Notes under the pieces: generated by a model | What the model was told of the DNA's origin: nothing | The model's input: only the letters and a program-made list of their open reading frames with translations | Databases searched by the model: none | Shown here: one piece after another, positions 5,663 to 16,994 of the stretch | How positions within the stretch are numbered: position 1 is the stretch's first letter | Layout of the letters: every line of letters begins with the position of its first letter | Assembly (NCBI RefSeq): GCF_002931075.1 | Contig: NZ_PSTQ01000004.1 | Span: forward strand, 186,001-250,000 | Origin: Pseudoclavibacter sp. AY1F1 | GTDB taxonomy: Bacteria > Actinomycetota > Actinomycetes > Actinomycetales > Microbacteriaceae | Direction of reading: 5' to 3' | Length of the DNA stretch: 64,000 bases | Made by a program: the position numbers and the translations under genes

Positions 5663-6721
5663 TTACCGTGAGCGCACCGCATCCGCGTGCATCGCCGTCT
5701 GCTGAAGCGCCGAGACCAGCGTGAAGCCGGCGAGGTTCTCCCAGCCGACCGACCAGGTGAGGCGGGAAGCGACCTCGAAGATCGAAGCCCCTGGCGACGA
5801 GTCAAGCGCGCTCGCGACTTCGTCGGTGCGCCGCTGGTGGTGCTGCGCGTGCTCGGCGCAGCGCTGCGCAAGGCCGACGAAGCGGTATCCGTGACCCGGA
5901 ACAGCCTCGTCGACGCCGAGGTCGATGATGCGGCGCAACGAACGCTGATACTGGAGAACCGGGTTGTGCCCGTCATCGCCCCCGAGTCCGAGCCCCGGGT
6001 GCAGGACGGGCGAGACGTGGTCGCCGGTGAAAACGAGCCGCGTGTCCTCGTCAACGACGGTGAGGTGCCCCGGCGTGTGGCCGGGTGTGTGGATGGCGCG
6101 CATCCGCCGCCCCGGCACGTCCAGCAGCTGCCCGTCATCAACGACCACGTCGGCGCGCAGCAGCACAGGCGTCGCCGACCGGCCGACAAGCTGCAGGATC
6201 TCGGTGTGCCGCTCGGCGGGCACGCCCCAGCCGAGGAGTCTCGCCCGCTCGGTCTCGACGGAGGGGCGGTCGGCCGCGAGCCGATCAAGCGCCGCCTGCT
6301 CGTCGCGGTGCAGCACGATCGGCGCACCAGAGACGTCCCGGAGCCGCTCGGCCAGGCCGAGATGGTCGTGGTGGAGGTGCGTCACGATGATCGAGCGGAC
6401 CTGGTCGAGCCGGTGACCTGATCCCTCGAGTGCGGTGGCCAGCGCGGCGAGGTTGTCGTCGGACCCCGAGCCCGGGTCGATGACGTGCACGCCACCTGCG
6501 TCGTCGGCGACGATCGACGCCAGCGTGCACGGAATGCGCCCTCCCGGCGTCGGGCCCGTTGGCATTGCGACGCCGACGGTCCAGATGCCGTCCCGAACGA
6601 AGTCGAGCGGCGCGACTCCCCCGTCGTTCCAGGCCGACCCCTGCGCGGCGCGGCTGGCCACGACCCCGCTCGTCGTCATGACGCAGTCACCGGGGCGTGC
6701 GGAGTGGCTCGAGTAGTGCAT
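5663..6721 (-). CDS. Metallo-beta-lactamase-fold hydrolase
   Basis: The protein has the metal-binding signature HLHHDH (His115, His117, Asp119, His120) and downstream His/Asp residues (for example TPGHTPGH and FTGDH) typical of the glyoxalase II/MBL superfamily. The second half carries a helical extension (KEAxQH-like, His/Arg-rich) seen in many MBL-fold thioesterase-like proteins. It is probably a cytoplasmic di-zinc hydrolase acting on a thioester or ester; the substrate cannot be named. The start is uncertain: the ATG at 6721 gives 352 residues, while MTTSGVV at 6679 gives 338. A long inverted repeat lies upstream. Confidence 0.8.
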   Translation of the reverse strand: MHYSSHSARPGDCVMTTSGVVASRAAQGSAWNDGGVAPLDFVRDGIWTVGVAMPTGPTPGGRIPCTLASIVADDAGGVHVIDPGSGSDDNLAALATALEGSGHRLDQVRSIIVTHLHHDHLGLAERLRDVSGAPIVLHRDEQAALDRLAADRPSVETERARLLGWGVPAERHTEILQLVGRSATPVLLRADVVVDDGQLLDVPGRRMRAIHTPGHTPGHLTVVDEDTRLVFTGDHVSPVLHPGLGLGGDDGHNPVLQYQRSLRRIIDLGVDEAVPGHGYRFVGLAQRCAEHAQHHQRRTDEVASALDSSPGASIFEVASRLTWSVGWENLAGFTLVSALQQTAMHADAVRSR

Positions 6722-6809
6722 CCCATGCCAGAAGCCTAGGACGCCGCGCGCCCGCGGTCAGCTGCAGGCGTCCGGGCCACCCGGAGCTGTAGCTAACCAC
6801 GCAGCGTGA

Positions 6810-6881
6810 CCAACATCGATGCAATATCGGCAAAAACAGTCTTCAGAACGCCGATCAGGCTCGATATTGCACTGATGTTGG
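6810..6881. repeat. 20-bp imperfect inverted repeat in the gap before the MBL-fold gene
   Basis: The arms at 6810-6829 and 6862-6881 match as CCAACATC-N2-TGCAATATCG against its reverse complement with two mismatches, separated by 32 bases. The segment is clearly less GC-rich than its surroundings. It lies upstream of the MBL-fold gene and downstream of the ureohydrolase gene, so it could be a double operator or, in RNA, the terminator stem of the ureohydrolase transcript. There is no T-run after the stem, which favours a protein-binding site. Confidence 0.6.
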
Positions 6882-6915
6882 ACAGCGCACGCGGCGAGCC
6901 GCCTCCGTGAATGTT

Positions 6916-7899
6916 CTAGCTACGCACCGCGAACATCGACACGAGCTCGTACACGACATGCGCCGCGGCGACACCCGTGAGCTCAGCGTGGTCGTACGCG
7001 GGCGACACCTCGACGACATCCGCGCCGACGACGTTGAGGTCCGCGAGACCGCGAAGGATCTCGAGCAGCTCGCGGCTCGTCATGCCGCCAGCCTCCGGCG
7101 TACCGGTGCCGGGCGCGTGGGCGGGGTCGAGCACGTCGATGTCGATCGAGATGTAGAGCGGTCGGTCCCCGATGCGCTCGCGCAGCTGCTGCACGACGGC
7201 GTCAGCCCCGCGGCGGTAGATGTCGGCCGAGCTGACGATGCCGAAGCCGAAGCGCTTGTCGTCCTCAAGGTCCTGCTTGCCGTACAACGGCCCGCGGGTA
7301 CCGACGTGGCTCAGCGCATCAGTGTCGAGCAGCCCCTCCTCGAACGCGCGACGGAACGGCGTGCCGTGCGTATAGGCGGCGCCGAAGTACGTGTCCCACG
7401 TGTCGAGGTGCGCGTCGAAGTGCAGCATCGCGACGGGGCCGTGGACGCGCGCCATGTTGCGCAGGAGCGGCAGGGCGATCGTGTGGTCGCCGCCGATCGT
7501 GACGATCTTGGCGCCGGTGTCGCTCAGCGCCTTGGCGGCCGCCTCGATCGTGCCGAGCGCCTCCTCGATGTCGAACGGGTTCACGGGAACGTCGCCCGCA
7601 TCCGCGACCTGCTGCGCCGCGAACGGCGACACGTCGAGCGTTGGGTGGTACGGCCGCAGGAGACGGCTCGACTGTCGCACGTGCGCCGGGCCGAAGCGAG
7701 CTCCGGGGCGGTACGAGACGCCGCTGTCGAAGGGAACGCCGAGGATCGCGACGTCGAGCTTCTCAACCTCGTCGACTCGCGGCAGCAGCGCAAACGTCGG
7801 GGGGCCCGCGAAGCGCGGAACCTGGGCCGAGTCGGTTGGTCCGACGTTGCCGTTCTGCGTCACCCGTGGCGGGTTCGTCCAGAAGAAATCGTTGCTCAC
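6916..7899 (-). CDS. Ureohydrolase: agmatinase / guanidinobutyrase family
   Basis: The enzyme hydrolyses a guanidino group to urea and an amine in the cytoplasm. All dinuclear metal ligands of the arginase/agmatinase family are visible: His139 (GGDHT), Asp162-His164-Asp166 (DAHLD), Asp253 and Asp255 (SIDIDVLDP), plus the THGTPFRR loop (His179). At 327 residues it has normal family length. Likely substrates are agmatine, 4-guanidinobutyrate or another guanidino acid; the family cannot be resolved further by eye. It lies downstream of a gene set for related chemistry but is separated from it by 556 bases with several hairpins, so it may have its own promoter. Confidence 0.85.
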
Positions 7900-7963
7900 T
7901 GTGGGGCCTCCTTGCCGCGTGCTTCTGGTCTGAAGTTAGCGAAACGAGGCATCCGAGTCGCGA

Positions 7964-8003
7964 GCGCTTTGCACCAGACTCGATGACGACGGGTGCAAAG
8001 CGC
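7964..8003. repeat. Perfect 12-bp inverted repeat GCGCTTTGCACC / GGTGCAAAGCGC
   Basis: The arms at 7964-7975 and 7992-8003 are perfectly complementary around a 16-base loop. The element sits about 65 bases upstream of the ureohydrolase gene. It differs in sequence from the two other hairpins in the same gap. It could be an operator, an RNA hairpin or an extragenic palindrome. Confidence 0.7.
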
Positions 8004-8125
8004 ACCCTTCCAGGCAATCTCGTCCCGACCAATGCCGACGGCCGTCACTCCGCGCATCCACGCTGAGCCGGGCCAAGCCCGGCCGAGCCCGACGACGCCC
8101 CGGCTGCGTCGCCCGCGGTCGCGTT

Positions 8126-8225
8126 CACTGCCAATCGAAACGCCCTTCAGAAGCGGCGTTCTGGGCCATTCGACTGGCAGCGATCCCCCTGAGCCAACCG
8201 AAAGGGCCACTCGCCTGGCAGCGAT
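8126..8225. repeat. Imperfect hairpin plus direct copies of a 22-bp unit
   Basis: An imperfect inverted repeat spans 8126-8184. Its right arm (8163-8184) is repeated directly at 8204-8225 with two mismatches, both ending in TGGCAGCGAT. A third, more diverged copy forms the right arm of the hairpin at 8338-8399. The arrangement resembles REP-type extragenic palindromic repeats, in which related units occur in paired and single forms. Confidence 0.65.
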
Positions 8226-8337
8226 GGACGCCACGCATGGACGCCCTCACCTGGCCGGCGGCAACAAGCAAGCGCCGCCCGCTGATGCCGCAGAGGCGCC
8301 GCCCACGCCGACGCGGAAGCCACACCCGCCCAAAGCG

Positions 8338-8399
8338 ATCGCTGCCCGGCGTTTCGCCCTCTGCGGCCGCCGTCAGAGGGCGAATCGCCGGGCAGCGAT
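8338..8399. repeat. 26-bp inverted repeat, large hairpin
   Basis: The arms at 8338-8363 and 8374-8399 begin and end with ATCGCTGCCCGGCG / CGCCGGGCAGCGAT and differ at one position, with a 10-base loop. It lies about 57 bases after the stop of the M20 gene and could act as its terminator, although no T-run follows. Sequence relatedness to the unit at 8163-8225 argues for a dispersed repeat family rather than a simple terminator. Confidence 0.75.
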
Positions 8400-8455
8400 G
8401 CGCGGGAGGGGCGCGCTGGAGGGGCGCGCGGGAGGGGCGGCGCCTCGGAGGAGGG

Positions 8456-9778
8456 CTAGGAGAGGTTGCCTCGGATGAGGTGCCGCACGACGCCGGTCAG
8501 CACGTCGAGCCCAGCGACGAGGTCGCCTGGCTCCGTGTACTCCCCCTCGTTGTGGGAGATCCCGTCGACGGACGGCACGAAGAGCATCACCGTCGGCACG
8601 AGCTCCTTCATGTTCGTCGAGTCGTGCCCGGCGACGGTCATGATCTCGTCGTTCGACAGGCCGAGCTCCTCGGCGACCGAGCGCGCCAGGTCGACGCCTG
8701 CCGGCTGGTACGGGTTGATGTCCCACGAGTGCGACAGCGTGCGCTCGATCTCGACGTCGGCCTTCGCCTCGATCTCCGCGAAGCGCGCATCCAGGAGGGC
8801 GTTGGCTTCCGCGAGCAGCGCCTCGTCGTCGCAGCGTAGGTCGAGCAGCAGCGTCACCTCGCTGGCGACGACGACCGGCGAGTTCGGGTATACGTCGAGT
8901 TGCCCGACCGCCGTGTGCAGCTTGCCTGGGAAGCGGTCGGTGAGCTCACGCGCGAAGACGACCAGCAGCGAGGCGCCGTAGAGGGCGTCCTTGCGGTCCT
9001 CCATAACGGTCGCGCCGGAGTGCGCCTGCTCGCCGCGCACCACAACCCGGTACTTGCTGGCTGCCCAGGTCGCGGTGACAAGACCGATGGTCGTGCCGGC
9101 GTTCTCGAGCAGGCGCCCCTGCTCGATGTGGATCTCGGCGCAGAGCGCGGCAACAGGGCCGGCGCCTTCTCCCAGGAATCCGGTGGGGCGCAGCGCCTCC
9201 TCGACGCTGATACCTGCCTTGTCGCGCACCGCCAGCGCATCCTCGAGTGGGAGCACGCCCGTGTAGACCGACGAGCCCATCATGGAGGGCACGAACCGCG
9301 AGCCCTCTTCGTTGAACCAGTTCACGACGGCCACGTTGTACTTCGCGCCCTCGGCGACACCGGCCGAAGCACCGCCGGCCGAAGCTTCGTCGGCGATGCG
9401 GAACGCGGCGTGCGCCGCGGCCAGCACCCCGTAGGCACCGTCGTACTTGCCCGCGGTCGGCTGCGAGTCCATGTGCGAGCCGATCAGCACGTAGGGCGCC
9501 CCGGGCACGAGCTCGAGCAGCCCGAACTGGTTGCCGATCCTGTCGTACTCGACCGTGAACCCTCGGCCTTCCAGCAGCCCCTGGAACCAGCGGCGCTGCT
9601 CGTTGTCTGCCTCGCTCGCGGCCTGGCGGTCGACGCCGCCATGGCCCGTCGCCCCGAAACCGCCCATGGTGTCGAAGTCGCGCAGGAAGCTCTCGTGCGC
9701 GTCGCCGCTCGCCGAGGACGTGGCGGTGGATGCAGCGCTGTCGGCCTGCGCCGTCGCGCGGTCATGCTTGTCGATCAT
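8456..9778 (-). CDS. M20 amidohydrolase (N-carbamoyl-amino acid / allantoate / ureido hydrolase type)
   Basis: The 440-residue metalloenzyme belongs to the Zn-dependent hydrolase group that removes carbamoyl or ureido groups as CO2 and ammonia. Metal and catalytic residues are visible: HMD (His102, Asp104), KYDGAYG (Asp113), NEEGSRF (Glu157-Glu158), IHIEQG (His217) and a C-terminal His in DGISHNEGEYT. The N-terminal 28 residues are Ala/Ser-rich and an Ala/Gly insertion lies near residue 135. The ATG overlaps the stop of the dehydrogenase gene. In this context a ureido acid made by the deiminase-like protein is an attractive substrate; this is inference. Confidence 0.83.
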   Translation of the reverse strand: MIDKHDRATAQADSAASTATSSASGDAHESFLRDFDTMGGFGATGHGGVDRQAASEADNEQRRWFQGLLEGRGFTVEYDRIGNQFGLLELVPGAPYVLIGSHMDSQPTAGKYDGAYGVLAAAHAAFRIADEASAGGASAGVAEGAKYNVAVVNWFNEEGSRFVPSMMGSSVYTGVLPLEDALAVRDKAGISVEEALRPTGFLGEGAGPVAALCAEIHIEQGRLLENAGTTIGLVTATWAASKYRVVVRGEQAHSGATVMEDRKDALYGASLLVVFARELTDRFPGKLHTAVGQLDVYPNSPVVVASEVTLLLDLRCDDEALLAEANALLDARFAEIEAKADVEIERTLSHSWDINPYQPAGVDLARSVAEELGLSNDEIMTVAGHDSTNMKELVPTVMLFVPSVDGISHNEGEYTEPGDLVAGLDVLTGVVRHLIRGNLS

Positions 9779-10749
9779 TGAGTGCTCCAGTTGGGGTCGG
9801 CTGGTGCGCCGAGCTCGGCGATGATGTTGAGGGCCGGCTGGGTTTCGTAGCCGGCGAGGGCAGCATCCGACCACCAGGCCGTATGCGGTGTAATGACGGT
9901 GCCTGGGTCGGTGCGCATGGAGTCGCTCGGATGCGGTGGCTCCCCGTCGAGGACGTCGGCCGCGTAGGTGCGCAGCGCGCCGCTCGCGAGGGCCGCTTGA
10001 ATGGCCGTCTCGTCGACGAGCCCGGCCCGGGAGACGTTGACGACGACCGCGCCGGCGGGCAGCAACGCGAGCGCGTCGTTGCCGATGATGCCGCGCGACT
10101 CGGCAGTCAGGGGCAGGTGGAGGCTCAGCGAGTCGGATGCGGCGAGGAGCTCGTCGAGCGACTCGACGAGCTCGACACCCTCCGGAGCCTCCTTGGCGTA
10201 GGGGTCGAAGGCGAGGACCCGCCCGAAGCTGGGGCGTGCGATCTCGGCGAGCCTGCCGCCGATGCGCCCGAGTCCGACGAGCCCGAGTGTGAGGGAGCTG
10301 AGGCGGCGCGGCACTTGCAGCCGCGCGGTTGCCTCATCGGTCCATTCCCCGCTGCGCACGAGCTGCAGGCTGCGCAGCAGGGATCTTTCGGCGGCGAGCA
10401 GCAGCGTGAGCGCGTGGGCTGCGACCTCTTCCGTCGCGACCCCGGCGAGGGTCACGACCTTCACGCCTCGCGCGGCGGCGGCATCCGCGTCGATCATGTC
10501 GGTGCCGACGGAGCTCGTCGCGAGGAGGCGAAGCGACGGCAGCTGGGCCAGGACATCCGCCGTGATGCGCGCGTAGCCGACGACGGCCGCGACGGCGTCG
10601 AGGTGCTCGCGTGGCACCACGGCGTCGAGCCCTGGTGAGGTCGGCAGCTCGAGGTGGGCGGTCGCGTACCCGGCTTCCCGCAGGAGCCTGGCGGCAGGCT
10701 CCTGCGACAGGTCGGTGGTGTCGGTGAAGATGACCAGTGGGCGCGTCAT
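9775..10749 (-). CDS. D-isomer-specific 2-hydroxyacid dehydrogenase
   Basis: This 324-residue NAD(P)-dependent oxidoreductase interconverts a 2-hydroxy and a 2-oxo acid. It shows the Rossmann motif GLVGLGRIGG and the catalytic trio as Arg in NVSRAGLVDE, Glu in DVLDGEPPHP and His in TPHTAWW. The start was set at MTRPLV, since the longer open frame runs through the ABC ATPase gene. It lies between the importer and the M20 enzyme with an ATGA overlap to the latter, so it belongs to the same transcript. The substrate is unknown; a 2-oxo/2-hydroxy guanidino acid would fit the neighbours. Confidence 0.85.
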   Translation of the reverse strand: MTRPLVIFTDTTDLSQEPAARLLREAGYATAHLELPTSPGLDAVVPREHLDAVAAVVGYARITADVLAQLPSLRLLATSSVGTDMIDADAAAARGVKVVTLAGVATEEVAAHALTLLLAAERSLLRSLQLVRSGEWTDEATARLQVPRRLSSLTLGLVGLGRIGGRLAEIARPSFGRVLAFDPYAKEAPEGVELVESLDELLAASDSLSLHLPLTAESRGIIGNDALALLPAGAVVVNVSRAGLVDETAIQAALASGALRTYAADVLDGEPPHPSDSMRTDPGTVITPHTAWWSDAALAGYETQPALNIIAELGAPADPNWSTQ

Positions 10750-10759
10750 GTCAGCTCTC

Positions 10760-11542
10760 TTACTTGAGGACGCGCGCCAGGAAGCGCTTCGTGCGTTCGT
10801 GCTGCGGGTTCTGGATGACGTCCTCAGGGGCGCCCTCTTCGACGATGACGCCGCCGTCCATGAAGACGACGCGGTCGCAGACGTCGCGCGCGAAGCCGAT
10901 CTCATGGGTCACGACAACCATCGTCATGCCCTCCTTCGCGAGCTTCGTCATGACCTGCAGCACCTCGCCGACAAGCTCGGGATCGAGCGCCGATGTCGGC
11001 TCATCGAAGAGCAGCACGCTCGGCTTCATGGCGAGCGCGCGGGCGATCGCCACCCGCTGCTGCTGGCCGCCGGAGAGCTGAGACGGGTAGTTTTCGCCTT
11101 TGTCCGCAAGGCCGACCTGCTCGAGCAGCACCTTCGCCGCCGCGATGGCCTCCGACTTCTTGTGGCCGAGGATCTGCACGGGCGACTCGATGATGTTCTC
11201 GATCGCCGTCATGTGCGGGAAGAGGTTGAAGCGCTGGAAGACCATGCCGATGTCTCGGCGGCGCTTCGCGATCTCGTTCGGGCGCAGCTCGTAGAGCTTG
11301 CCGTTCTTCTCCTTGTAGCCAACGGGCTCACCCGCTACCCGGATGATCCCGCGGTCGGCGGTCTCGAGGTGATTGAGGCAGCGCAGGAGCGTCGACTTAC
11401 CCGAGCCGGAGGGGCCGAGGATGCTGACGACCTCGCCGGCGTGCACGTCGAGCGAGATGTCCTTGAGCACTTCGACGCTGCCGAACGACTTGGCGACGTT
11501 GCGCAGCTCGATCATGGGGGCAGCCTGCGTGGATGCTGGCAT
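10760..11542 (-). CDS. Amino-acid ABC transporter ATP-binding protein
   Basis: The 260-residue ATPase powers a polar amino-acid importer. It shows Walker [10 protein letters not shown], the Q-loop region, signature LSGGQQQR, Walker [13 protein letters not shown] and the switch histidine in VVVTHEIGF, a pattern typical of the GlnQ/HisP group. The start MPASTQ overlaps the permease stop by one base (TGATG), which sets it firmly against the longer open frame. It works with the permease and binding protein immediately upstream in the operon. Confidence 0.92.
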
Positions 11543-12507
11543 CAGCGGAGCACCTCTCTGCTTGTTCCTGAAGACCTGCGGTTGGGCAGAATCGAGTTGA
11601 GGACTCGCTTCCACACGGGTTCTGGGGTCGCGAAGCCCCGCGACTTGCCGAGCTTGCGCTCGAGGAAGCCCTGGCCGATGCTCGCGATCGAGGTGAGGAT
11701 CAGGTACCAGATGCTCGCGACGAGCAGCATCTCCATGCGGCTGAAGTCCGCGGCACCGATCTGTTGGGCTCTGGTCAGCAGGTCGCCCGCGCCGATCACC
11801 GACACGAGCGAGGTCTCCTTGAGCAGCGTGACGAGCTCGTTGCCCATGGGCGGGACGATCGAGCGCAGCGCCTGCGGCAGGATGATGCGGAACATGATCT
11901 TGCCCTGCGTCATGCCGAGCGCCTCGGCCGCCTCCTTCTGACCGGGGTCGATGGAGATGATGCCGCCGCGGATGATCTCCGACATGTACGCGGACTCATT
12001 GGCGGCGAGGCCGAGCACGGCCGCCGTGAGCGGGAGGATGAGGTCGTTCGTGTCGAGCTGCACGAACACCAGGTCGATCTGCGGGAAGAACAGGGCCAGG
12101 TTGAACCAGATGAGGATCTGGACCAGGATCGGCGTCCCGCGGAAGATCCAGACGAATCCGCTCGAGATGGCGCGCAGCACCCCGTTGCTGGAGATGCGCA
12201 TCACGGCGAGCGTGATGCCGCCGATGATGCCGAGGATCATGCTGACGACGGTCAGCATGATCGTGATGAGGAGGCCCTGCATGATGGCCTCTGCGAAGAC
12301 TCTCGAGCCGACCTTCTCCCAGCGGATGCTCGATCCCGTCGCGACGTCGTAGATCAGCTTCCCGACGAAGAGGAGCACGATCGCGGCGAAGATCCATTGG
12401 CCGTAGTGCCGCAGTGGGACGATTTTTGGGGCGTCGGCCGCGGGCGCGGCGGGGGCGGTGGAGACCGCTCCCGTCGCGCCCGTGGAGGGGCCGGTCGAGT
12501 GAGTCAC
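11542..12507 (-). CDS. Amino-acid ABC transporter permease
   Basis: The 321-residue inner-membrane subunit has a disordered Ala/Thr-rich N-terminus (about 30 residues), then at least five hydrophobic segments with the HisM/GlnP-type core. The coupling-loop region reads [25 protein letters not shown] split over the EAA motif and its extension. A single permease gene implies a homodimer. It is translated between the binding protein and the ATPase. Specificity for arginine-like or other polar amino acids is suggested only by the surrounding guanidino-related genes. Confidence 0.9.
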
Positions 12508-12547
12508 TGTTCTTCAGCTCCGTTGTGTTTCTTCGTGCCTGTCGCTG

Positions 12548-13438
12548 TTACTCGGCGCCGTTGATGACGACTTCGGTGACAGCTCCGCCTTCCTGGCCGT
12601 GGGAGGCCAGGATGTCGGCGTAGGTGCCGTCGTCGATGAGCGACTGGAGTGCTGCCTGGATGGCGGCGCTCAGCGTGTTGTCCTTAGCGACTGCCATGCC
12701 GAGGGGCTCTGGCTGGAAGGGCTCCTCGTTGGCGAGCTCGAAGCCGCCTGCCTGTTCGACGTTGTAGCTCGCGACCGGGTACTGGCTGACCGACGCGACT
12801 GCGCGGCCGGACTGCACCTGGATGAGCGCGTCGTTGTCGGTGGACTGCGCCGAGATCTCGATCGGGCTGGAGGCGCAGATGTCGGTGTTGAAGGCCTCGA
12901 GGATGCCCTGCTGCGCGGAGTCGCGGAGCACGGAGACAGCCTTGCCGCAGAGGTCGGCCTCGGCCGCGATGCCCTCCGGGTTGCCTTCGGCGACGACGAT
13001 GCCCTGGCCGGCGTTGAAGTAGTCGACGAAGTCGTAGTTCTCCTGGCGCTCCGGGGTGTCGGTCATGGCGGCGACGACGACGTCGTAGCGAGCCGTGTCG
13101 AGCGACGGGAGGAGCGTGTCGAACGCGACGTTCTCGATCGTGACCTCGAGGCCGAGCTTCTGGCCGACGGCCTTGATGAGGTCCATGTCGAGACCGATGA
13201 CGGTTGCGCCGTCGGCGTCGAGGTACTCGTATGGCGGGTAGTACGCCTCGGTGCCGACGGTGAGGGTGCCGGCGTCGGCGATCTCCTGCGGGAGGAGCGC
13301 GACTGCCGCCTCGTCGACGGCGACTTCAGAGACGTCCGCCTCCGGTGCATCGCCTGACGCGCATCCTGCGAGCAGTGCGGTGAGTGCGACGAACGAGGCG
13401 CCAGCCAGGCCCGCCTTCATGAGCTTCTTGGATGCCAT
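12548..13438 (-). CDS. Amino-acid ABC transporter substrate-binding lipoprotein
   Basis: This 296-residue extracellular receptor has a lipoprotein signal ending LLAGC and a SBP_bac_3 core starting LTVGTEAYYPPYEY, with GLDMDLIKAVGQKLG and DVVVAAMTDTPERQ. The Asp/Arg pair that normally clamps the alpha-amino and carboxylate groups is probably in MTDTPER, supporting an amino-acid-like ligand. It is the first gene of the importer operon, and its leader carries a palindrome and a motif shared with the deiminase-like gene. Confidence 0.9.
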   Translation of the reverse strand: MASKKLMKAGLAGASFVALTALLAGCASGDAPEADVSEVAVDEAAVALLPQEIADAGTLTVGTEAYYPPYEYLDADGATVIGLDMDLIKAVGQKLGLEVTIENVAFDTLLPSLDTARYDVVVAAMTDTPERQENYDFVDYFNAGQGIVVAEGNPEGIAAEADLCGKAVSVLRDSAQQGILEAFNTDICASSPIEISAQSTDNDALIQVQSGRAVASVSQYPVASYNVEQAGGFELANEEPFQPEPLGMAVAKDNTLSAAIQAALQSLIDDGTYADILASHGQEGGAVTEVVINGAE

Positions 13439-13456
13439 GTGAATTTCTCCTTCTCT

Positions 13457-13475
13457 TGATCACCAGCAGTGATCA
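13457..13475. promoter_or_regulatory. Palindrome TGATCAC-N5-GTGATCA in the leader of the importer operon
   Basis: Perfect 7-base arms at 13457-13463 and 13469-13475 flank CAGCA, 19 bases upstream of the binding-protein start. The shape suits a dimeric repressor, and the position just before the ribosome site would block transcription or form an RNA hairpin. The regulator is not identified. Confidence 0.5.
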
Positions 13476-13483
13476 TCTGTAGG

Positions 13484-13500
13484 CAACATGCGTAATCTAG
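13484..13500 (-). promoter_or_regulatory. Copy 1 of a promoter motif shared with the deiminase-like operon
   Basis: On the minus strand it reads CTAGATTACGCATGTTG, with AGTT five bases further upstream, 45 bases before the binding-protein gene. The same arrangement, CTAGACAACGCATGATG, occurs at 16969-16985, also preceded by AGTT at the same spacing. Fourteen of 17 positions agree. It could be a shared activator/repressor site or overlapping promoter elements. Confidence 0.5.
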
Positions 13501-13631
13501 GAGGCAACTTGCCGCCGGAGGCGCCAAGTCACGCAGGGTTTACAAGGGCGTTACGTGCCGAGCAAACGCTCGGTCTGTTCAGGGAACCGACAGTACTGCG
13601 TCCGTCGAGTTCGGGATTGCATCAAAGGAAC

Positions 13632-14225
13632 TCAGGTGGTGCCTCCCCACGCTGCGGGAGCGAGCACCCAGAGGAGTTCGACTCCCTCGGTCGAGTCGAG
13701 CGTGTGCCACGTGTGCGGCTCGCGCCCGTCAAGTGTGATCGAGTCGCCGGACTCGAGCTCCCACGTCTCCGACGCCAGCACAACCGTGATCGACCCGCGC
13801 AGCACGTGCAGGAAGTCGACCTCGCAGTTCACGGAGTAGAGCTCCTCTCCCCCGGTCCCCGACATGCCGGCGTCGACACGGGATCGCACCACCTGGAACC
13901 GCGGGTCGTTGCGGGGGCTGAGCAGGCGCTCGTACACGTTCGTGCCGCCGAGGTTGATCTGCGGGGCGTCCTCGAAGCGCACGAGCTTCGCATCCGGTGC
14001 GCTGAAGAGCTCGCCGACCTCGATGTTGAGCACGTCGCAGAGCAGCACGAGCGTCGAGACGCTCGGTGAGGTCTGGTCGCGCTCCACTCGGCTGAGGAAG
14101 CTCTTGCTGAGCCCCGTTGCACTGGCGAGCTGCTCGATCGTCATCTGCCGAAGCTGGCGCACCGATCGAAGCCTGCCGCCGATGGCGGCCGGCTCGTTGC
14201 GGGGCACGACGGGCAGGGCCCTCAC
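13632..14225 (-). CDS. XRE-family regulator with C-terminal cupin sensor domain
   Basis: The 197-residue transcription factor has an HTH_3 domain at about residues 14-68 (RLRSVRQLRQMTIEQLA, GLSKSFLSRVERD) and a cupin barrel at about 115-190 (DFLHVLRGS, GREPHTWHT), the layout of PuuR-like regulators that sense small metabolites. It starts with GTG overlapping the stop of the ThDP gene (14222-14225). Position inside the island makes it the probable local regulator, and the palindrome at 16955-16994 or the shared motif is a candidate target. The effector is unknown. Confidence 0.88.
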   Translation of the reverse strand: MRALPVVPRNEPAAIGGRLRSVRQLRQMTIEQLASATGLSKSFLSRVERDQTSPSVSTLVLLCDVLNIEVGELFSAPDAKLVRFEDAPQINLGGTNVYERLLSPRNDPRFQVVRSRVDAGMSGTGGEELYSVNCEVDFLHVLRGSITVVLASETWELESGDSITLDGREPHTWHTLDSTEGVELLWVLAPAAWGGTT

Positions 14226-15898
14226 CGGTGCACCGCGGGCCGATGCGTGTGGGTCGGCTCGAACAGCTCAAGGGTCGCTGGCAGCACCAGCACGCGGGGA
14301 CCTGGGGTGCGGATGCTCTCGGCGAGTTCTGCGGCGAGGGTGTCGAGCTCCACGGGCCTCGACTCGACTCCGAACGCGCGTGCGACGGCGAGGTAGTCCG
14401 GGCCAGTGAGCTCAGTCGCCGTGGCGCGTCCGTACGCCTCGTTCATGTAGCCGCGCAGCACGCCGTAGCCGCCGTCGTCGACTACCAGCCAGGTGACGCT
14501 GAGCTGGGATTGCGCGAGCGTCGACAGCTCGGCGACCCCGTAAAGGCCGCCGCCGTCTCCGGAGATGGCAACAACTGGCGCACCGTTGGGGTTGTCCCGC
14601 GATCGAGAGGCGAACGATGCGCCGATAGCGCCGGGGAGACCGAAGCCGAGGCCGCCGCACTGCCCGTTCTCGTAGACCCCGCCGCGTGCATCCCACGCCG
14701 ACCAGGCCCAGTAGGCGCTGATCGTCATGTCCCAGAAGGTGGCGACGTCGTCGGGGATCGCCGAGCGGAGCGTGTCGAGGAGCTGGCGCTCCTTCTGCAG
14801 CGGCTGCGCGTCGAGACGTGTGCGCACCGCCTGGAGGAGCTCGTCGATCGCAGGGCGCGCATCCGCTCGCTCGCCGGCCCCGCTCGCGCGCAGCCGGTCG
14901 AGGATGCCCTGCAGCGCCAGCCCGGCGTCGGAGCGCAGCGTGATCGTGCCGGCGTGGTTGGCACCGAGCACACGAGCGTCGGCGTCGATATGGATGACCG
15001 TGCCGGTCGGCGCGAGGCGGAAGTAGTTCGAGGACAGCTCACTCAGACCGGTGCCGATGACGACCAGCACGTCGGCCGCCTCAAGGAACTCGGTGGTCGC
15101 GATGTCCTCGATCCAGCCCTCGGCCGACAGCGGATGCGCCCACGGGAACGCGCTGCGCCCGCCGTAGGTCGTGACCACCGGAGCCTGCAGCTGCTCTGCA
15201 AGTTGCTCGAGCAGCTCGCCAGCGCCAGAGCGGACGACGCCTCCACCCGCATAGATGCGGGGGTTCGCCGACGCCGCCAGCAGGCTCGCGGCCGCCGCGA
15301 GCTGCGCATCCGACGCCTCAGGCGCAAGCGCGTAGGCCTCGGCAGCGATGCCGTTCAGCTGCCCATCGGCGAGCTCGATGCTCGCCTGCTGCACGTCGTG
15401 CGGCACCTCGACGTACACGGGGCCAGCTGGCGCGCTCTGCGCCGTGCGCCACGCCTCGACCAGCGTCGGCACGATCTGCTCGACCGAGCGGATGCTCCAC
15501 GTGCCCTTCGCGATTCCGCGGAAGTGCGCTTCCTGGTCGCGCAGCTCGTGCAGGTAGCCGTGCGCCTGGCCGCCGATGCCCGGAGTGGGCACCTGCGCGG
15601 AGATGAGGAGCACGGGAGAGCTGGCGGTCGCCGCTTCCTGGAGGCCGGGCAGTGCCGTCAGCGCGCCTGGCCCCGCCGAGAGCAGCAACGGGGTGACCGT
15701 TCCCGTGACCCGTGCGTGCCCGTCCGCCATGAACGCCGCGTTGTTCTCGACTCGCGCGCCCAGGTAGTCGAGCGAGCTGTCGCCAAGCGCGTCGAACATG
15801 GGGAGCGCGTGCTGCCCGGGGAGTCCGACGACACGCTCCGCGCCGAGTGCCTCGAGCGTCCGGATGACAAGTTCCCCGCCGGTGACGTTTTCTGACAT
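14222..15898 (-). CDS. Thiamine-diphosphate-dependent enzyme (acetolactate synthase-like, 2-oxo acid decarboxylase candidate)
   Basis: At 558 residues it has the three-domain layout of the family. The N-terminal Pyr domain holds the catalytic Glu in RVENNAAFMADG; a central domain follows; the C-terminal PP domain begins its cofactor site with GDGGGLYG and continues to VVDDGGYGVLR, with Asp-Asp where many relatives have Asn. The family includes acetolactate synthase, benzoylformate decarboxylase and the 2-ketoarginine decarboxylase AruI. Given the guanidino-related neighbours, decarboxylation of a 2-oxo guanidino acid is the favoured but unproven role. Its ATG lies 3 bases after the preceding stop codon. 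Confidence 0.82.
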   Translation of the reverse strand: MSENVTGGELVIRTLEALGAERVVGLPGQHALPMFDALGDSSLDYLGARVENNAAFMADGHARVTGTVTPLLLSAGPGALTALPGLQEAATASSPVLLISAQVPTPGIGGQAHGYLHELRDQEAHFRGIAKGTWSIRSVEQIVPTLVEAWRTAQSAPAGPVYVEVPHDVQQASIELADGQLNGIAAEAYALAPEASDAQLAAAASLLAASANPRIYAGGGVVRSGAGELLEQLAEQLQAPVVTTYGGRSAFPWAHPLSAEGWIEDIATTEFLEAADVLVVIGTGLSELSSNYFRLAPTGTVIHIDADARVLGANHAGTITLRSDAGLALQGILDRLRASGAGERADARPAIDELLQAVRTRLDAQPLQKERQLLDTLRSAIPDDVATFWDMTISAYWAWSAWDARGGVYENGQCGGLGFGLPGAIGASFASRSRDNPNGAPVVAISGDGGGLYGVAELSTLAQSQLSVTWLVVDDGGYGVLRGYMNEAYGRATATELTGPDYLAVARAFGVESRPVELDTLAAELAESIRTPGPRVLVLPATLELFEPTHTHRPAVHR

Positions 15899-15901
15899 CG
15901 C

Positions 15902-16915
15902 TTACCAGTCCCTCTGGAGTTCCATCGTCGAGCAGTGCAGCCCGCCGCCGTTCTTGTTGATCTCGCGGTAGGTGACGGGGATGATCTCCACGCCGTACTT
16001 CGAGTTGAGGAGCTCCGCGGTGCGAGGCAGGTGCGACGGGAAGAGCAGCTTGCGCCGATCGAGCGTCAGGAGGTTGCACGCCCAGTCCTCCTGGGGCGCC
16101 ACGTCGACCGTTTCAATGCCGAGCTTCCAGAGCGCATCGAGGAAGTCGTACGGCGCGATGCGCGAGTTCACGAGAGCGAGGTCATCGTCGAGCATGGCGC
16201 AGCACAGGTCGAGGTGGATCTGGTAACCGGGCATCTGCGAGTGGATGAGCTCGATGCCCTGCTCGTCCAGGATGTTCTTCAGCTGGCGGTAGCCCTCAAC
16301 GTTGCAGCGCACGGAGGTGCCGAAGAACGCGAGGTCGGGGCGAACCTTGATGAAGCTGCCGCCCTCCACGAGACCCGTGCCGGTGATCGTGCCGAGGATG
16401 GGCATGCCCTGGGCCGCGACCGTCTGGGTGATCGACTGCTCCTCACCGCGTCGCATGCGCGGCGCAAGACGGCCGATGATCGCGCCGCCAGGAATCGTGA
16501 CGAGCGGGTCCCGCGTGAAGACGGACTTCGTGAAGCTCGGGGCGAGGTCAGGGGCCATGACGACCTCGACATCGTTGTCTTCGAGCACTGTGACGAAGCT
16601 GTCGAACTCGGAGTGCAGCTTCTCGAGGTCAGGGAACCCGCGGCCTGACCAGTACCAGCGGCGGTCCGGGTCGACGTACGCACCGATCTCGGGCATCCAG
16701 GTGGATTCGCCCGCCTTCTCGACGGCCTCGAGGCCGGCGCTGGGGCGGCGCATCATGATCGTGCGGAGTCGACCGACTTCGTCCTGCGCGCCCCATTTGC
16801 GGCCCCAGTAGGTGGGCAGCTCCGTGTCGGCGAGGAAGCCGGGTTCAGCTTCAGGGCCGAGGAGGCGGTGGAAGGCGCCGTCTGACATCTCGAGGGTGGG
16901 GTCGACGTCGGTCAT
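15902..16915 (-). CDS. Arginine-deiminase-fold guanidino hydrolase
   Basis: This 337-residue member of the guanidino-group-modifying superfamily has the full catalytic set: Asp136 (FTRD), Glu184 (VEGG), His234 and Asp236 (HLD) and Cys328 (GGLHC near the C-terminus). Glu rather than Asp in the EGG motif favours a hydrolase (deiminase or dimethylargininase type) over an amidinotransferase. EGGS replaces the EGGD of arginine deiminase, so the substrate may differ from arginine. The start MTDVDP is chosen because GAAAGG lies 7 bases upstream. It is first in a three-gene transcript with the ThDP enzyme and the regulator. Confidence 0.82.
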   Translation of the reverse strand: MTDVDPTLEMSDGAFHRLLGPEAEPGFLADTELPTYWGRKWGAQDEVGRLRTIMMRRPSAGLEAVEKAGESTWMPEIGAYVDPDRRWYWSGRGFPDLEKLHSEFDSFVTVLEDNDVEVVMAPDLAPSFTKSVFTRDPLVTIPGGAIIGRLAPRMRRGEEQSITQTVAAQGMPILGTITGTGLVEGGSFIKVRPDLAFFGTSVRCNVEGYRQLKNILDEQGIELIHSQMPGYQIHLDLCCAMLDDDLALVNSRIAPYDFLDALWKLGIETVDVAPQEDWACNLLTLDRRKLLFPSHLPRTAELLNSKYGVEIIPVTYREINKNGGGLHCSTMELQRDW

Positions 16916-16954: not shown

Positions 16955-16994
16955 AGTTTCGCTCACGACATCATGCGTTGTCTAGTGCGAAACT
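16955..16994. promoter_or_regulatory. Two-part palindromic operator candidate upstream of the deiminase-like gene
   Basis: AGTTTCGC (16955-16962) pairs with GCGAAACT (16987-16994), and inside them GACA (16967-16970) pairs with TGTC (16979-16982), each with identical 4-base spacers around a central 8 bases. The perfectly symmetric spacing is hard to explain by chance. It lies between the divergent deiminase-like and SRPBCC genes and overlaps copy 2 of the shared motif (16969-16985). Confidence 0.6.

What the first reader, a model, noticed from the sequence alone, without database searches (positions are those of the whole stretch)
6916..16915. Predicted catabolic island for a guanidino compound with two routes to remove the guanidino group
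Seen: a ureohydrolase with all metal ligands, an arginine-deiminase-fold hydrolase with all catalytic residues, an M20 carbamoyl/ureido-type amidohydrolase, a ThDP-dependent 2-oxo acid enzyme, a 2-hydroxyacid dehydrogenase, an amino-acid ABC importer and an XRE-cupin regulator, all on one strand. Known: the arginine transaminase route uses a ThDP decarboxylase (AruI) and a guanidinobutyrase; deiminases make ureido compounds that M20 enzymes can hydrolyse. Inferred: a pathway for arginine-derived 2-hydroxy or 2-oxo acids (for example argininic acid or 2-ketoarginine), with a choice between urea release and full ammonia release. I know of no described operon with this exact set.
Basis: partly seen in the sequence, partly recalled or inferred. 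Interest (0 to 1): 0.78.

Follow-up and report, generated by a model that had tools for sequence, protein, structure and literature searches.

The report
Two-route guanidino-acid catabolic gene cluster
A Pseudoclavibacter bacterium carries, side by side, two predicted enzyme sets for stripping the nitrogen-rich guanidino group from what is probably a breakdown product of arginine: the usual one-step urea-releasing enzyme and a two-step deiminase route that seems to replace it in related bacteria.

Summary
In detail: nine minus-strand genes at 6916-16915 encode a ureohydrolase, M20 carbamoylase, 2-hydroxyacid dehydrogenase, amino-acid-type ABC importer, XRE-cupin regulator, ThDP enzyme and arginine-deiminase-fold hydrolase, with the expected residues where checked. 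The genome is a Pseudoclavibacter. Comparative genomics supports most of the interpretation. The window-type ThDP enzyme is adjacent to an orthologue of this ureohydrolase in 18 of 20 loci read from other Micrococcales. Of 12 deiminase loci elsewhere, 10 have an M20 gene within 7 kb (7 adjacent), 7 a ThDP gene and none a ureohydrolase. Four of those seven ThDP proteins match 5-guanidino-2-oxopentanoate decarboxylase (AruI) best, one over its cut-off. A Pseudactinotalea locus adds aldehyde dehydrogenases and a GABA transaminase. I read this as the 2-ketoarginine -> 4-guanidinobutyrate -> GABA route, in which the guanidino group leaves either as urea (guanidinobutyrase) or through 4-ureidobutyrate (deiminase plus carbamoylase), the counterpart of the two agmatine routes. 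Pseudoclavibacter has both in one cluster. Substrate and order of steps are inferred; there is no assay. My literature searches, in an open-access library and partly capped listings, showed no 4-guanidinobutyrate deiminase.

The parts
15902..16915 (-). Arginine-deiminase-fold hydrolase (DEIM), 337 aa; predicted guanidino-acid (4-guanidinobutyrate) deiminase
14222..15898 (-). ThDP-dependent 2-oxo acid enzyme, 558 aa; predicted 2-oxo-acid decarboxylase in a sister clade of AruI proteins
   Evidence: TPP_enzyme_N/M/C; NF005712 290 bits, below cut-off 500; tree; adjacent to a ureohydrolase orthologue in 18 of 20 related loci read
13632..14225 (-). XRE-cupin transcriptional regulator
   Evidence: HTH_3 + Cupin_2; homologue in 19 of 20 loci of the window-type ThDP enzyme
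12548..13438 (-). ABC importer substrate-binding protein (SBP_bac_3)
   Evidence: homologues at L161 beside a ureohydrolase and at L086
11542..12507 (-). ABC importer permease, polar-amino-acid type
   Evidence: BPD_transp_1 and HEQRo_perm_3TM
10760..11542 (-). ABC importer ATPase
   Evidence: ABC_tran
9775..10749 (-). D-2-hydroxyacid dehydrogenase family protein, 324 aa
   Evidence: 2-Hacid_dh/2-Hacid_dh_C; homologue in the same cluster in L039, L040, L050, L051
8456..9778 (-). M20 hydantoinase/carbamoylase-family amidohydrolase, 440 aa; predicted ureido-acid (4-ureidobutyrate) amidohydrolase
   Evidence: TIGR01879 268 bits over cut-off 204; NF006772 433 over 424; homologue within 7 kb of the deiminase in 10 of 12 other loci, adjacent in 7
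6916..7899 (-). Ureohydrolase, 327 aa; predicted guanidino-acid ureohydrolase of the guanidinobutyrase/guanidinopropionase type
   Evidence: PF00491; nearest solved structures GpuA 3nip (277 bits), GbuA 3nio (269 bits) ahead of agmatinases (at most 208); R82 aligns with GbuA R72; 69-76% identical orthologues adjacent to the window-type ThDP enzyme
16955..16994 (.). 40-nt inverted repeat upstream of the deiminase gene; candidate operator of the cluster
   Evidence: arms 16 nt, 81% complementary; identical 40-nt block in 5 of 5 Pseudoclavibacter genomes while flanks differ; binding not tested

Best explanation
This is a catabolic cluster for arginine-derived guanidino acids. The ABC importer takes up the compound (inferred). 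The ThDP enzyme decarboxylates 2-ketoarginine, possibly supplied from D-argininate by the 2-hydroxyacid dehydrogenase, and a separate aldehyde dehydrogenase gives 4-guanidinobutyrate (inferred from neighbouring genes in relatives). The guanidino group then leaves by one of two routes. The ureohydrolase gives GABA plus urea. Alternatively the deiminase gives 4-ureidobutyrate plus ammonia, and the M20 enzyme splits this into GABA, CO2 and a second ammonia. GABA enters the GABA shunt through enzymes encoded elsewhere in the genome. Shown by computation: gene content, catalytic residues, fold, and repeated alternation of the two modules beside AruI-type or sister ThDP enzymes. Inferred: substrate identity, order of steps, and regulation by the XRE-cupin protein.
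For: Window-type ThDP enzyme: adjacent to a 69-76% identical ureohydrolase in 18 of 20 loci read, 2 kb away in 1, absent in 1 short contig (20 of the 24 places were read). AruI-family loci: 10 of 20 read have this ureohydrolase nearby, 9 adjacent; L086 carries importer, ureohydrolase, AruI, two aldehyde-dehydrogenase homologues and a GABA-transaminase homologue. Deiminase loci: M20 within 7 kb in 10 of 12 (7 adjacent), ThDP in 7 of 12, ureohydrolase in 0 of 12. Four of those seven ThDP proteins have NF005712, 5-guanidino-2-oxopentanoate decarboxylase, as best model (541, 461, 448, 417 bits; one over the cut-off of 500). L006 has deiminase, M20, AruI-type ThDP, overlapping ALDH, GABA transaminase over cut-off, and an SSADH-like gene (500 bits, cut-off 646). 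The ThDP tree needs 4 changes for the deiminase label and starred branches force 4. All 10 deiminase genomes tested have an M20 of this family against 41 of 297 genomes of the order, those five of the ten included. Own genome has a GABA transaminase over cut-off and an ALDH 49% identical to the L006 one, plus a 53% one with a stop inside the match. Guanidino-acid-type ureohydrolase (PMC9772407 passages).
Against: The window ThDP enzyme does not reach the AruI cut-off (290 of 500). No transaminase or aldehyde dehydrogenase lies in the window cluster. Ten of 20 AruI loci have no such ureohydrolase. Three deiminase genomes (G064, G121, G146) also hold a close ureohydrolase elsewhere, so exclusion is incomplete. 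M20 relatives in genomes without a deiminase sit by another ThDP family and/or an Amidohydro_3 enzyme, and the window M20 is closest outside its genus to one of these (75%), so M20 may have another or broader substrate. NCBIfam would call the ureohydrolase agmatinase (230 bits over cut-off 174). Five of 12 deiminase loci (L007, L008, L041, L052, L053) show no ThDP gene; L007 and L052 are short contigs and L053 a 6-kb stretch.
Confidence: 0.62

Rival explanations
1. Same pathway, other order: the ureohydrolase, or deiminase plus M20, act on 2-ketoarginine itself, giving 5-amino-2-oxopentanoate, which the ThDP enzyme then decarboxylates to 4-aminobutanal.
For: In S. meliloti the AruI homologue IlvB1 had sevenfold higher activity on 5-amino-oxopentanoate, and ureohydrolase SpeB2 acted on 2-ketoarginine (5-guanidino-2-oxopentanoate) as well as 4-guanidinobutanoate (PMC7268258 passages). 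The window ThDP is outside the AruI cut-off. No ALDH is in the window cluster.
Against: L006, L086, L158 and L159 carry aldehyde dehydrogenases with the module, but that fits both orders. M20 carbamoylases are known on ureido acids with a carboxylate nearby (family knowledge).
Confidence: 0.2
2. The deiminase-M20 pair degrades another guanidino acid (guanidinoacetate, 3-guanidinopropionate, guanidinosuccinate, arginine itself) and its neighbourhood with the ThDP enzyme reflects only a shared theme of guanidine nitrogen use.
For: Three loci (L007, L008, L041) have deiminase and M20 without ThDP; L041 has an NCS1-family carrier (94 bits, cut-off 353) and L008 a carrier that looks alike from its first residues but matched no model at 1e-20. 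M20 also hits beta-alanine synthases and allantoate enzymes. M20 partners differ elsewhere.
Against: Seven of 12 loci have a ThDP enzyme of the AruI or sister group, and the deiminase alternates with the ureohydrolase on the ThDP tree. Arginine deiminase and dimethylargininase models are not reached.
Confidence: 0.15
3. The deiminase-fold protein is an amidinotransferase moving the guanidino group to an amine instead of hydrolysing it.
Confidence: 0.03

Closest known systems
Arginine transaminase (AruHI-KauB-GbuA) route of Pseudomonas aeruginosa
   Same: ThDP enzyme related to AruI, guanidino-acid ureohydrolase related to GbuA/GpuA, and GABA-forming logic in relatives; the pathway itself is recalled, with passages in PMC7268258
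   Different: No transaminase or aldehyde dehydrogenase in the cluster; adds a deiminase plus M20 carbamoylase, 2-hydroxyacid dehydrogenase and ABC importer; ThDP enzyme below the AruI cut-off
Agmatine deiminase + N-carbamoylputrescine amidohydrolase, alternative to agmatinase
   Same: Same logic: a two-step deiminase/carbamoylase route replacing a one-step ureohydrolase (alternatives stated in the start of the abstract of PMC12283126, listing)
   Different: Substrate is predicted to be a guanidino acid; by sequence the deiminase is nearest DDAH, and the second enzyme is M20, whereas AguB is nitrilase-type (recalled)
Guanidinobutyrase GbuA / guanidinopropionase GpuA (3nio, 3nip)
   Same: Best solved relatives of the ureohydrolase; metal ligands and the Arg at GbuA position 72 kept
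   Different: Tyr where GbuA has Met in the alignment (GpuA has Tyr too); substrate not assayed
Sinorhizobium meliloti arginine transamination network (CATCH-N)
   Same: 2-oxo acid decarboxylase plus ureohydrolase plus dehydrogenases to GABA and succinate (PMC7268258 passages)
   Different: Arginine deiminases are present there; the passages read mention no guanidino-acid deiminase/carbamoylase pair
Dimethylarginine dimethylaminohydrolase and arginine deiminase families
   Same: Fold and catalytic Cys/His/Glu/Asp
   Different: Far below both families' cut-offs (75 of 450 and 46 of 489 bits); about 90 residues precede the region matched by DDAH

Membership tests
AruI, 5-guanidino-2-oxopentanoate decarboxylase (NF005712) | Score over the curated cut-off of 500 bits | tested here: not met
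   Window ThDP enzyme 289.8 bits; it falls in a sister clade of AruI proteins
AruI, 5-guanidino-2-oxopentanoate decarboxylase (NF005712) | Decarboxylates 2-ketoarginine | not testable with these tools
   Needs an assay
Guanidinobutyrase (ureohydrolase superfamily) | Arginase family with binuclear metal ligands | tested here: met
   PF00491 324 bits; H139, D162, H164, D166, D253, D255
Guanidinobutyrase (ureohydrolase superfamily) | Arg at the GbuA R72 position that could meet the substrate carboxylate | tested here: met
   R82 aligns with R72 (role proposed in PMC9772407 passages)
Guanidinobutyrase (ureohydrolase superfamily) | Hydrolyses 4-guanidinobutyrate in preference to agmatine | not testable with these tools
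   The NCBIfam agmatinase equivalog also passes its cut-off (230 over 174), so naming by model is ambiguous
Arginine deiminase (TIGR01078) | Score over cut-off 489 | tested here: not met
   45.9 bits
Dimethylargininase DDAH (NF045658) | Score over cut-off 450 | tested here: not met
   75.2 bits
Guanidino-group-modifying (ADI-fold) superfamily | Fold and catalytic Cys, His, Glu, Asp | tested here: met
M20 hydantoinase/carbamoylase family (TIGR01879) | Score over cut-off and metal-binding motifs | tested here: met
   268 over 204; GSHMDS, NEEG, HIEQG, SHNE motifs
Arginine transaminase pathway cluster | Arginine:pyruvate transaminase (AruH) encoded in the cluster or genome | not tested
   None among the ten proteins of 5663-16915 that were scanned; the rest of the genome was not searched for AruH
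Arginine transaminase pathway cluster | ThDP decarboxylase clustered with guanidinobutyrase | tested here: met
   Same cluster in the window, 6 kb apart; adjacent in 18 of 20 related loci read

The most novel reading that the evidence does not exclude
The deiminase is a 4-guanidinobutyrate deiminase and the M20 enzyme a 4-ureidobutyrate amidohydrolase: an undescribed urease-independent branch of arginine catabolism that repeatedly replaced guanidinobutyrase in actinobacteria, with Pseudoclavibacter keeping both and able to choose between releasing urea and releasing ammonia.
Probability: 0.45. Interest if true: 0.65.

Novelty: new variant of a known kind. Interest (0 to 1): 0.55.

Why it matters
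It would add a second, urea-free exit from 4-guanidinobutyrate, matching the two known exits from agmatine, and give functions to an ADI-fold family and an M20 subfamily that are now named only by distant homology (DDAH, allantoate amidohydrolase). It also shows how bacteria swap a one-step ureohydrolase for a two-step deiminase route in the same gene context; whether this follows a strain's ability to use urea was not tested. The main claims can be tested with a handful of purified enzymes.

Tried and rejected
Considered and set aside: (1) clavulanate-like biosynthesis (ThDP synthase plus proclavaminate amidinohydrolase; recalled): no beta-lactam synthetase among the proteins scanned, and the ureohydrolase scores higher to GpuA/GbuA (277/269 bits) than to proclavaminate amidinohydrolase (251). 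(2) Allantoin/glyoxylate pathway (M20 'allantoate amidohydrolase' name, ThDP as glyoxylate carboligase): the ThDP enzyme keeps the conserved Glu (that the carboligase lacks it is recalled), and carboligase is not among the 25 of 51 models shown for it. (3) Amidinotransferase reading: see rivals. (4) MBL-fold gene 5663-6721 as a member: found by tblastn only in the four Pseudoclavibacter loci of the 16 searched. (5) The first fold model (13 rows, pLDDT 70.6) had weak active-site loops and was replaced by one on 32 rows. (6) Sigma-70-like promoter scan: 0 sites, 0.4 expected.

Limits of the counts: only the best 4 to 7 first-look candidates per genome were scored, so genome counts are lower bounds. 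The ThDP tree uses a chosen 34 rows, not all loci. In the M20 tree the label means 'from a deiminase locus', except that L203 (G684) lies on another contig than its deiminase; the partial M20 of L053 was left out.

Literature: searches. None of the listed titles or abstract starts named a guanidinobutyrate deiminase or a microbial ureidobutyrate hydrolase, but one search listed 25 of 92 papers and 15 of 23, the exact phrases were searched only together with a second term, and the library is open-access only. From recall, not from any call: papers of the 1990s describe guanidinobutyrase and an arginine aminotransferase pathway in 'Brevibacterium helvolum', a name once used for Pseudoclavibacter helvolus. 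One search found no paper and the 3 papers did not look related; NCBI lists the two names separately, so this link is unverified.


Full report
OBSERVATION. The window is G000:C24:186001-250000 of a 4.1-Mb genome. Its deiminase is 97-98% identical to those of four Pseudoclavibacter records, so it is a Pseudoclavibacter. Nine genes on the minus strand fill 6916-16915 as stated: deiminase (DEIM) 15902-16915, ThDP enzyme 14222-15898, XRE-cupin 13632-14225, binding protein 12548-13438, permease 11542-12507, ATPase 10760-11542, D-2-hydroxyacid dehydrogenase 9775-10749, M20 enzyme 8456-9778, ureohydrolase (UREO) 6916-7899. The residues checked in three hydrolases and the ThDP enzyme are present. There is a 556-bp gap before UREO and 193 bp before the binding protein; the other genes lie within 40 bp of each other or overlap. 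The same order is found in 4 of 4 other Pseudoclavibacter records.

GENE CONTEXT OF THE DEIMINASE. I compared twelve deiminase loci outside Pseudoclavibacter (L006, L007, L008, L039, L040, L041, L042, L043, L050, L051, L052, L053). An M20 homologue lies within 7 kb in 10: it is the next gene in 7 (L006, L007, L008, L039, L040, L041, L051), and 2-7 kb away in L043, L050 and L053. The two misses are L042 and L052; L052 is a 3.7-kb contig cut inside the deiminase gene. A ThDP enzyme is present in 7 of 12. A 2-hydroxyacid dehydrogenase is present in 4 of 12, plus a cut one by Pfam in L006. A ureohydrolase is present in 0 of 12. The genomes behind the two misses do hold an M20 of this family (G064; G684), and all 10 deiminase genomes tested have one, against 41 of 297 in the order, five deiminase genomes among them. 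The importer differs: SBP3-type ABC in L042, L043, L050, L051 and L053; a second ABC type in L006, L039 and L040, which looks like the spermidine/putrescine kind from its first residues but was not scanned; and an NCS1-family carrier in L041 (94 bits, below its cut-off of 353) with a similar-looking one in L008 that matched no NCBIfam model at 1e-20. Of the seven ThDP proteins, three are of the window type (L039, L040, L050). The other four are best matched by NF005712, 5-guanidino-2-oxopentanoate decarboxylase: L051 541 bits (over the cut-off of 500), L042 461, L006 448, L043 417. L006 (Pseudactinotalea) adds an aldehyde dehydrogenase overlapping the ThDP gene (best model 388 of 730 bits), a GABA transaminase over its cut-off, an SSADH-like gene (500 of 646 bits) and a PucR-type regulator, which together outline 2-ketoarginine to succinate.

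GENE CONTEXT OF THE UREOHYDROLASE. The window-type ThDP search gave 24 places in the order. Twenty were read; left out were the window itself, G643 (a deiminase locus in hand), G616 and G713. The 20 ThDP enzymes are 44-56% identical by tblastn. UREO, 69-76% identical to the window one, is adjacent in 18. It is 2 kb away in L161 (62%), which also has the same SBP-permease-ATPase importer. It is absent from the 5.2-kb contig L162, which repeats the window order ThDP-XRE-SBP-permease-ATPase-2HADH. An XRE homologue is in 19 of 20. L158 and L159 add homologues of the ALDH, SSADH and GABA transaminase of L006. Of 50 AruI-family places in 30 of 297 genomes (only one genome over the family cut-off), 20 were read; the two places that carry the deiminase (G731:C23, G622) were left out because already in hand, and 28 were not read. 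UREO (52-72%) is nearby in 10 and adjacent in 9; L088 has only a 31% one, not counted. No deiminase was found in the 20 at E <= 1e-10. UREOs listed share the loop DTYxGA, except L059/L090 and L113 (GPYF) and the remote L088. So the window UREO belongs to a conserved ureohydrolase-ThDP-regulator module.

ALTERNATION. On a tree of 34 chosen ThDP proteins the window type is a sister clade of AruI proteins, with a third ThDP family as outgroup (midpoint root). The labels 'beside UREO', 'beside DEIM' and 'both' need 4 changes together; starred branches force 3 for UREO and 4 for DEIM. So the guanidino-removal module beside the same kind of decarboxylase changed several times. The window lies inside the deiminase-linked part of its clade and also carries UREO. 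Among 11 deiminase genomes searched, four have no UREO hit, two only remote ones (28-30%), three have close ones elsewhere (59-70%) and two are Pseudoclavibacter. The modules are therefore mostly, not strictly, alternative.

UREOHYDROLASE SPECIFICITY. NCBIfam names it agmatinase (230 bits over 174), but guanidinopropionase and guanidinobutyrase are its best solved relatives. R82 matches GbuA R72, the residue proposed to meet the substrate carboxylate (PMC9772407 passages). That paper reports that a human enzyme annotated agmatinase, 60% identical to GbuA, hydrolyses guanidino acids while agmatine hydrolysis was not detected. The window enzyme has Tyr where GbuA has Met in the alignment, as in GpuA, so 3-guanidinopropionate is not excluded. 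That this site is a specificity switch is recalled.

MECHANISM. Main reading (confidence 0.62): 2-ketoarginine -> 4-guanidinobutanal -> 4-guanidinobutyrate, then either UREO (GABA + urea) or DEIM (4-ureidobutyrate + NH3) and M20 (GABA + CO2 + NH3), then the GABA shunt. The own genome has a GABA transaminase over cut-off and an aldehyde dehydrogenase 49% identical to the L006 one; a 53% one has a stop inside the match. The reversed order is a real rival: a S. meliloti AruI homologue is more active on 5-amino-2-oxopentanoate, and ureohydrolase SpeB2 acts on 2-ketoarginine, guanidinobutyraldehyde and 4-guanidinobutyrate (PMC7268258 passages). The 2-hydroxyacid dehydrogenase may feed D-argininate into the path; this is inference only.

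EVIDENCE AGAINST. M20 is not a private partner of the deiminase. Of 20 M20 loci read (19 from genomes without a deiminase hit), 10 have a neighbour that looks like Amidohydro_3 from its first residues (3 of these 10 scanned by Pfam, all 3 confirmed), and 9 have a ThDP enzyme nearby, over the PRK08199 cut-off in 4 of 5 scanned. The M20 nearest to the window one outside the genus (75%, G723) is of this kind. Deiminase-linked M20s are scattered on the M20 tree (5 changes, at least 3 forced). This can mean repeated recruitment of a ureido-acid hydrolase, or that M20 serves a broader purpose. Ten of 20 AruI loci have no UREO. The window ThDP enzyme fails the AruI cut-off.

KNOWN OR NEW. The logic copies the two agmatine routes (agmatinase against agmatine deiminase plus N-carbamoylputrescine amidohydrolase; start of abstract of PMC12283126 in the listing). 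Searches showed no guanidinobutyrate deiminase or microbial ureidobutyrate hydrolase in what was listed (25 of 92 papers, 15 of 23; titles and abstract starts). In the one such paper whose passages I read, 4-ureidobutyrate is a ligand of human beta-ureidopropionase (PMC10741476). I call it a new variant of a known kind.

Noticed in passing
16955-16994: A 40-nt inverted-repeat block (AGTTTCGC...GCGAAACT) upstream of the deiminase gene is identical in 5 of 5 Pseudoclavibacter genomes while its flanks vary; a candidate operator. A TTCGCTA-like stretch also precedes the ureohydrolase gene in all five.
   Followed up: partly
7964-8003: Perfect 12-nt inverted repeat GCGCTTTGCACC / GGTGCAAAGCGC in the gap before the ureohydrolase gene; only partly kept in the other Pseudoclavibacter genomes.
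   Followed up: partly
L194, L195, L202, L204, L209 (and other loci): M20 relatives in genomes without a deiminase stand beside a PRK08199-type ThDP enzyme (over cut-off in 4 of 5 scanned) and/or an Amidohydro_3 enzyme, some with MFS and PucR-type genes: perhaps another route that makes a ureido substrate.
   Followed up: partly
L008:7959-12242, L041:3813-8989: Compact loci of deiminase, M20, an NCS1-like carrier and a SnoaL-like small protein, without ThDP enzyme; L041 lies next to genes that look like tryptophan catabolism by their first residues.
   Followed up: no
5663-6721: MBL-fold hydrolase (NF053820 143 bits, cut-off 525) next to the ureohydrolase, kept in the genus but in no other deiminase locus.
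   Followed up: no
G000:C27:24686-25390: A second, remote (27%) DDAH-like gene in the same genome; similar remote genes occur in many genomes of the family.
   Followed up: no
L051:1283-3459: A Rieske ring-hydroxylating oxygenase (Pfam) and a reductase-like gene (by eye) near an AruI-deiminase-M20-2HADH cluster, possibly a step feeding another guanidino compound in.
   Followed up: no
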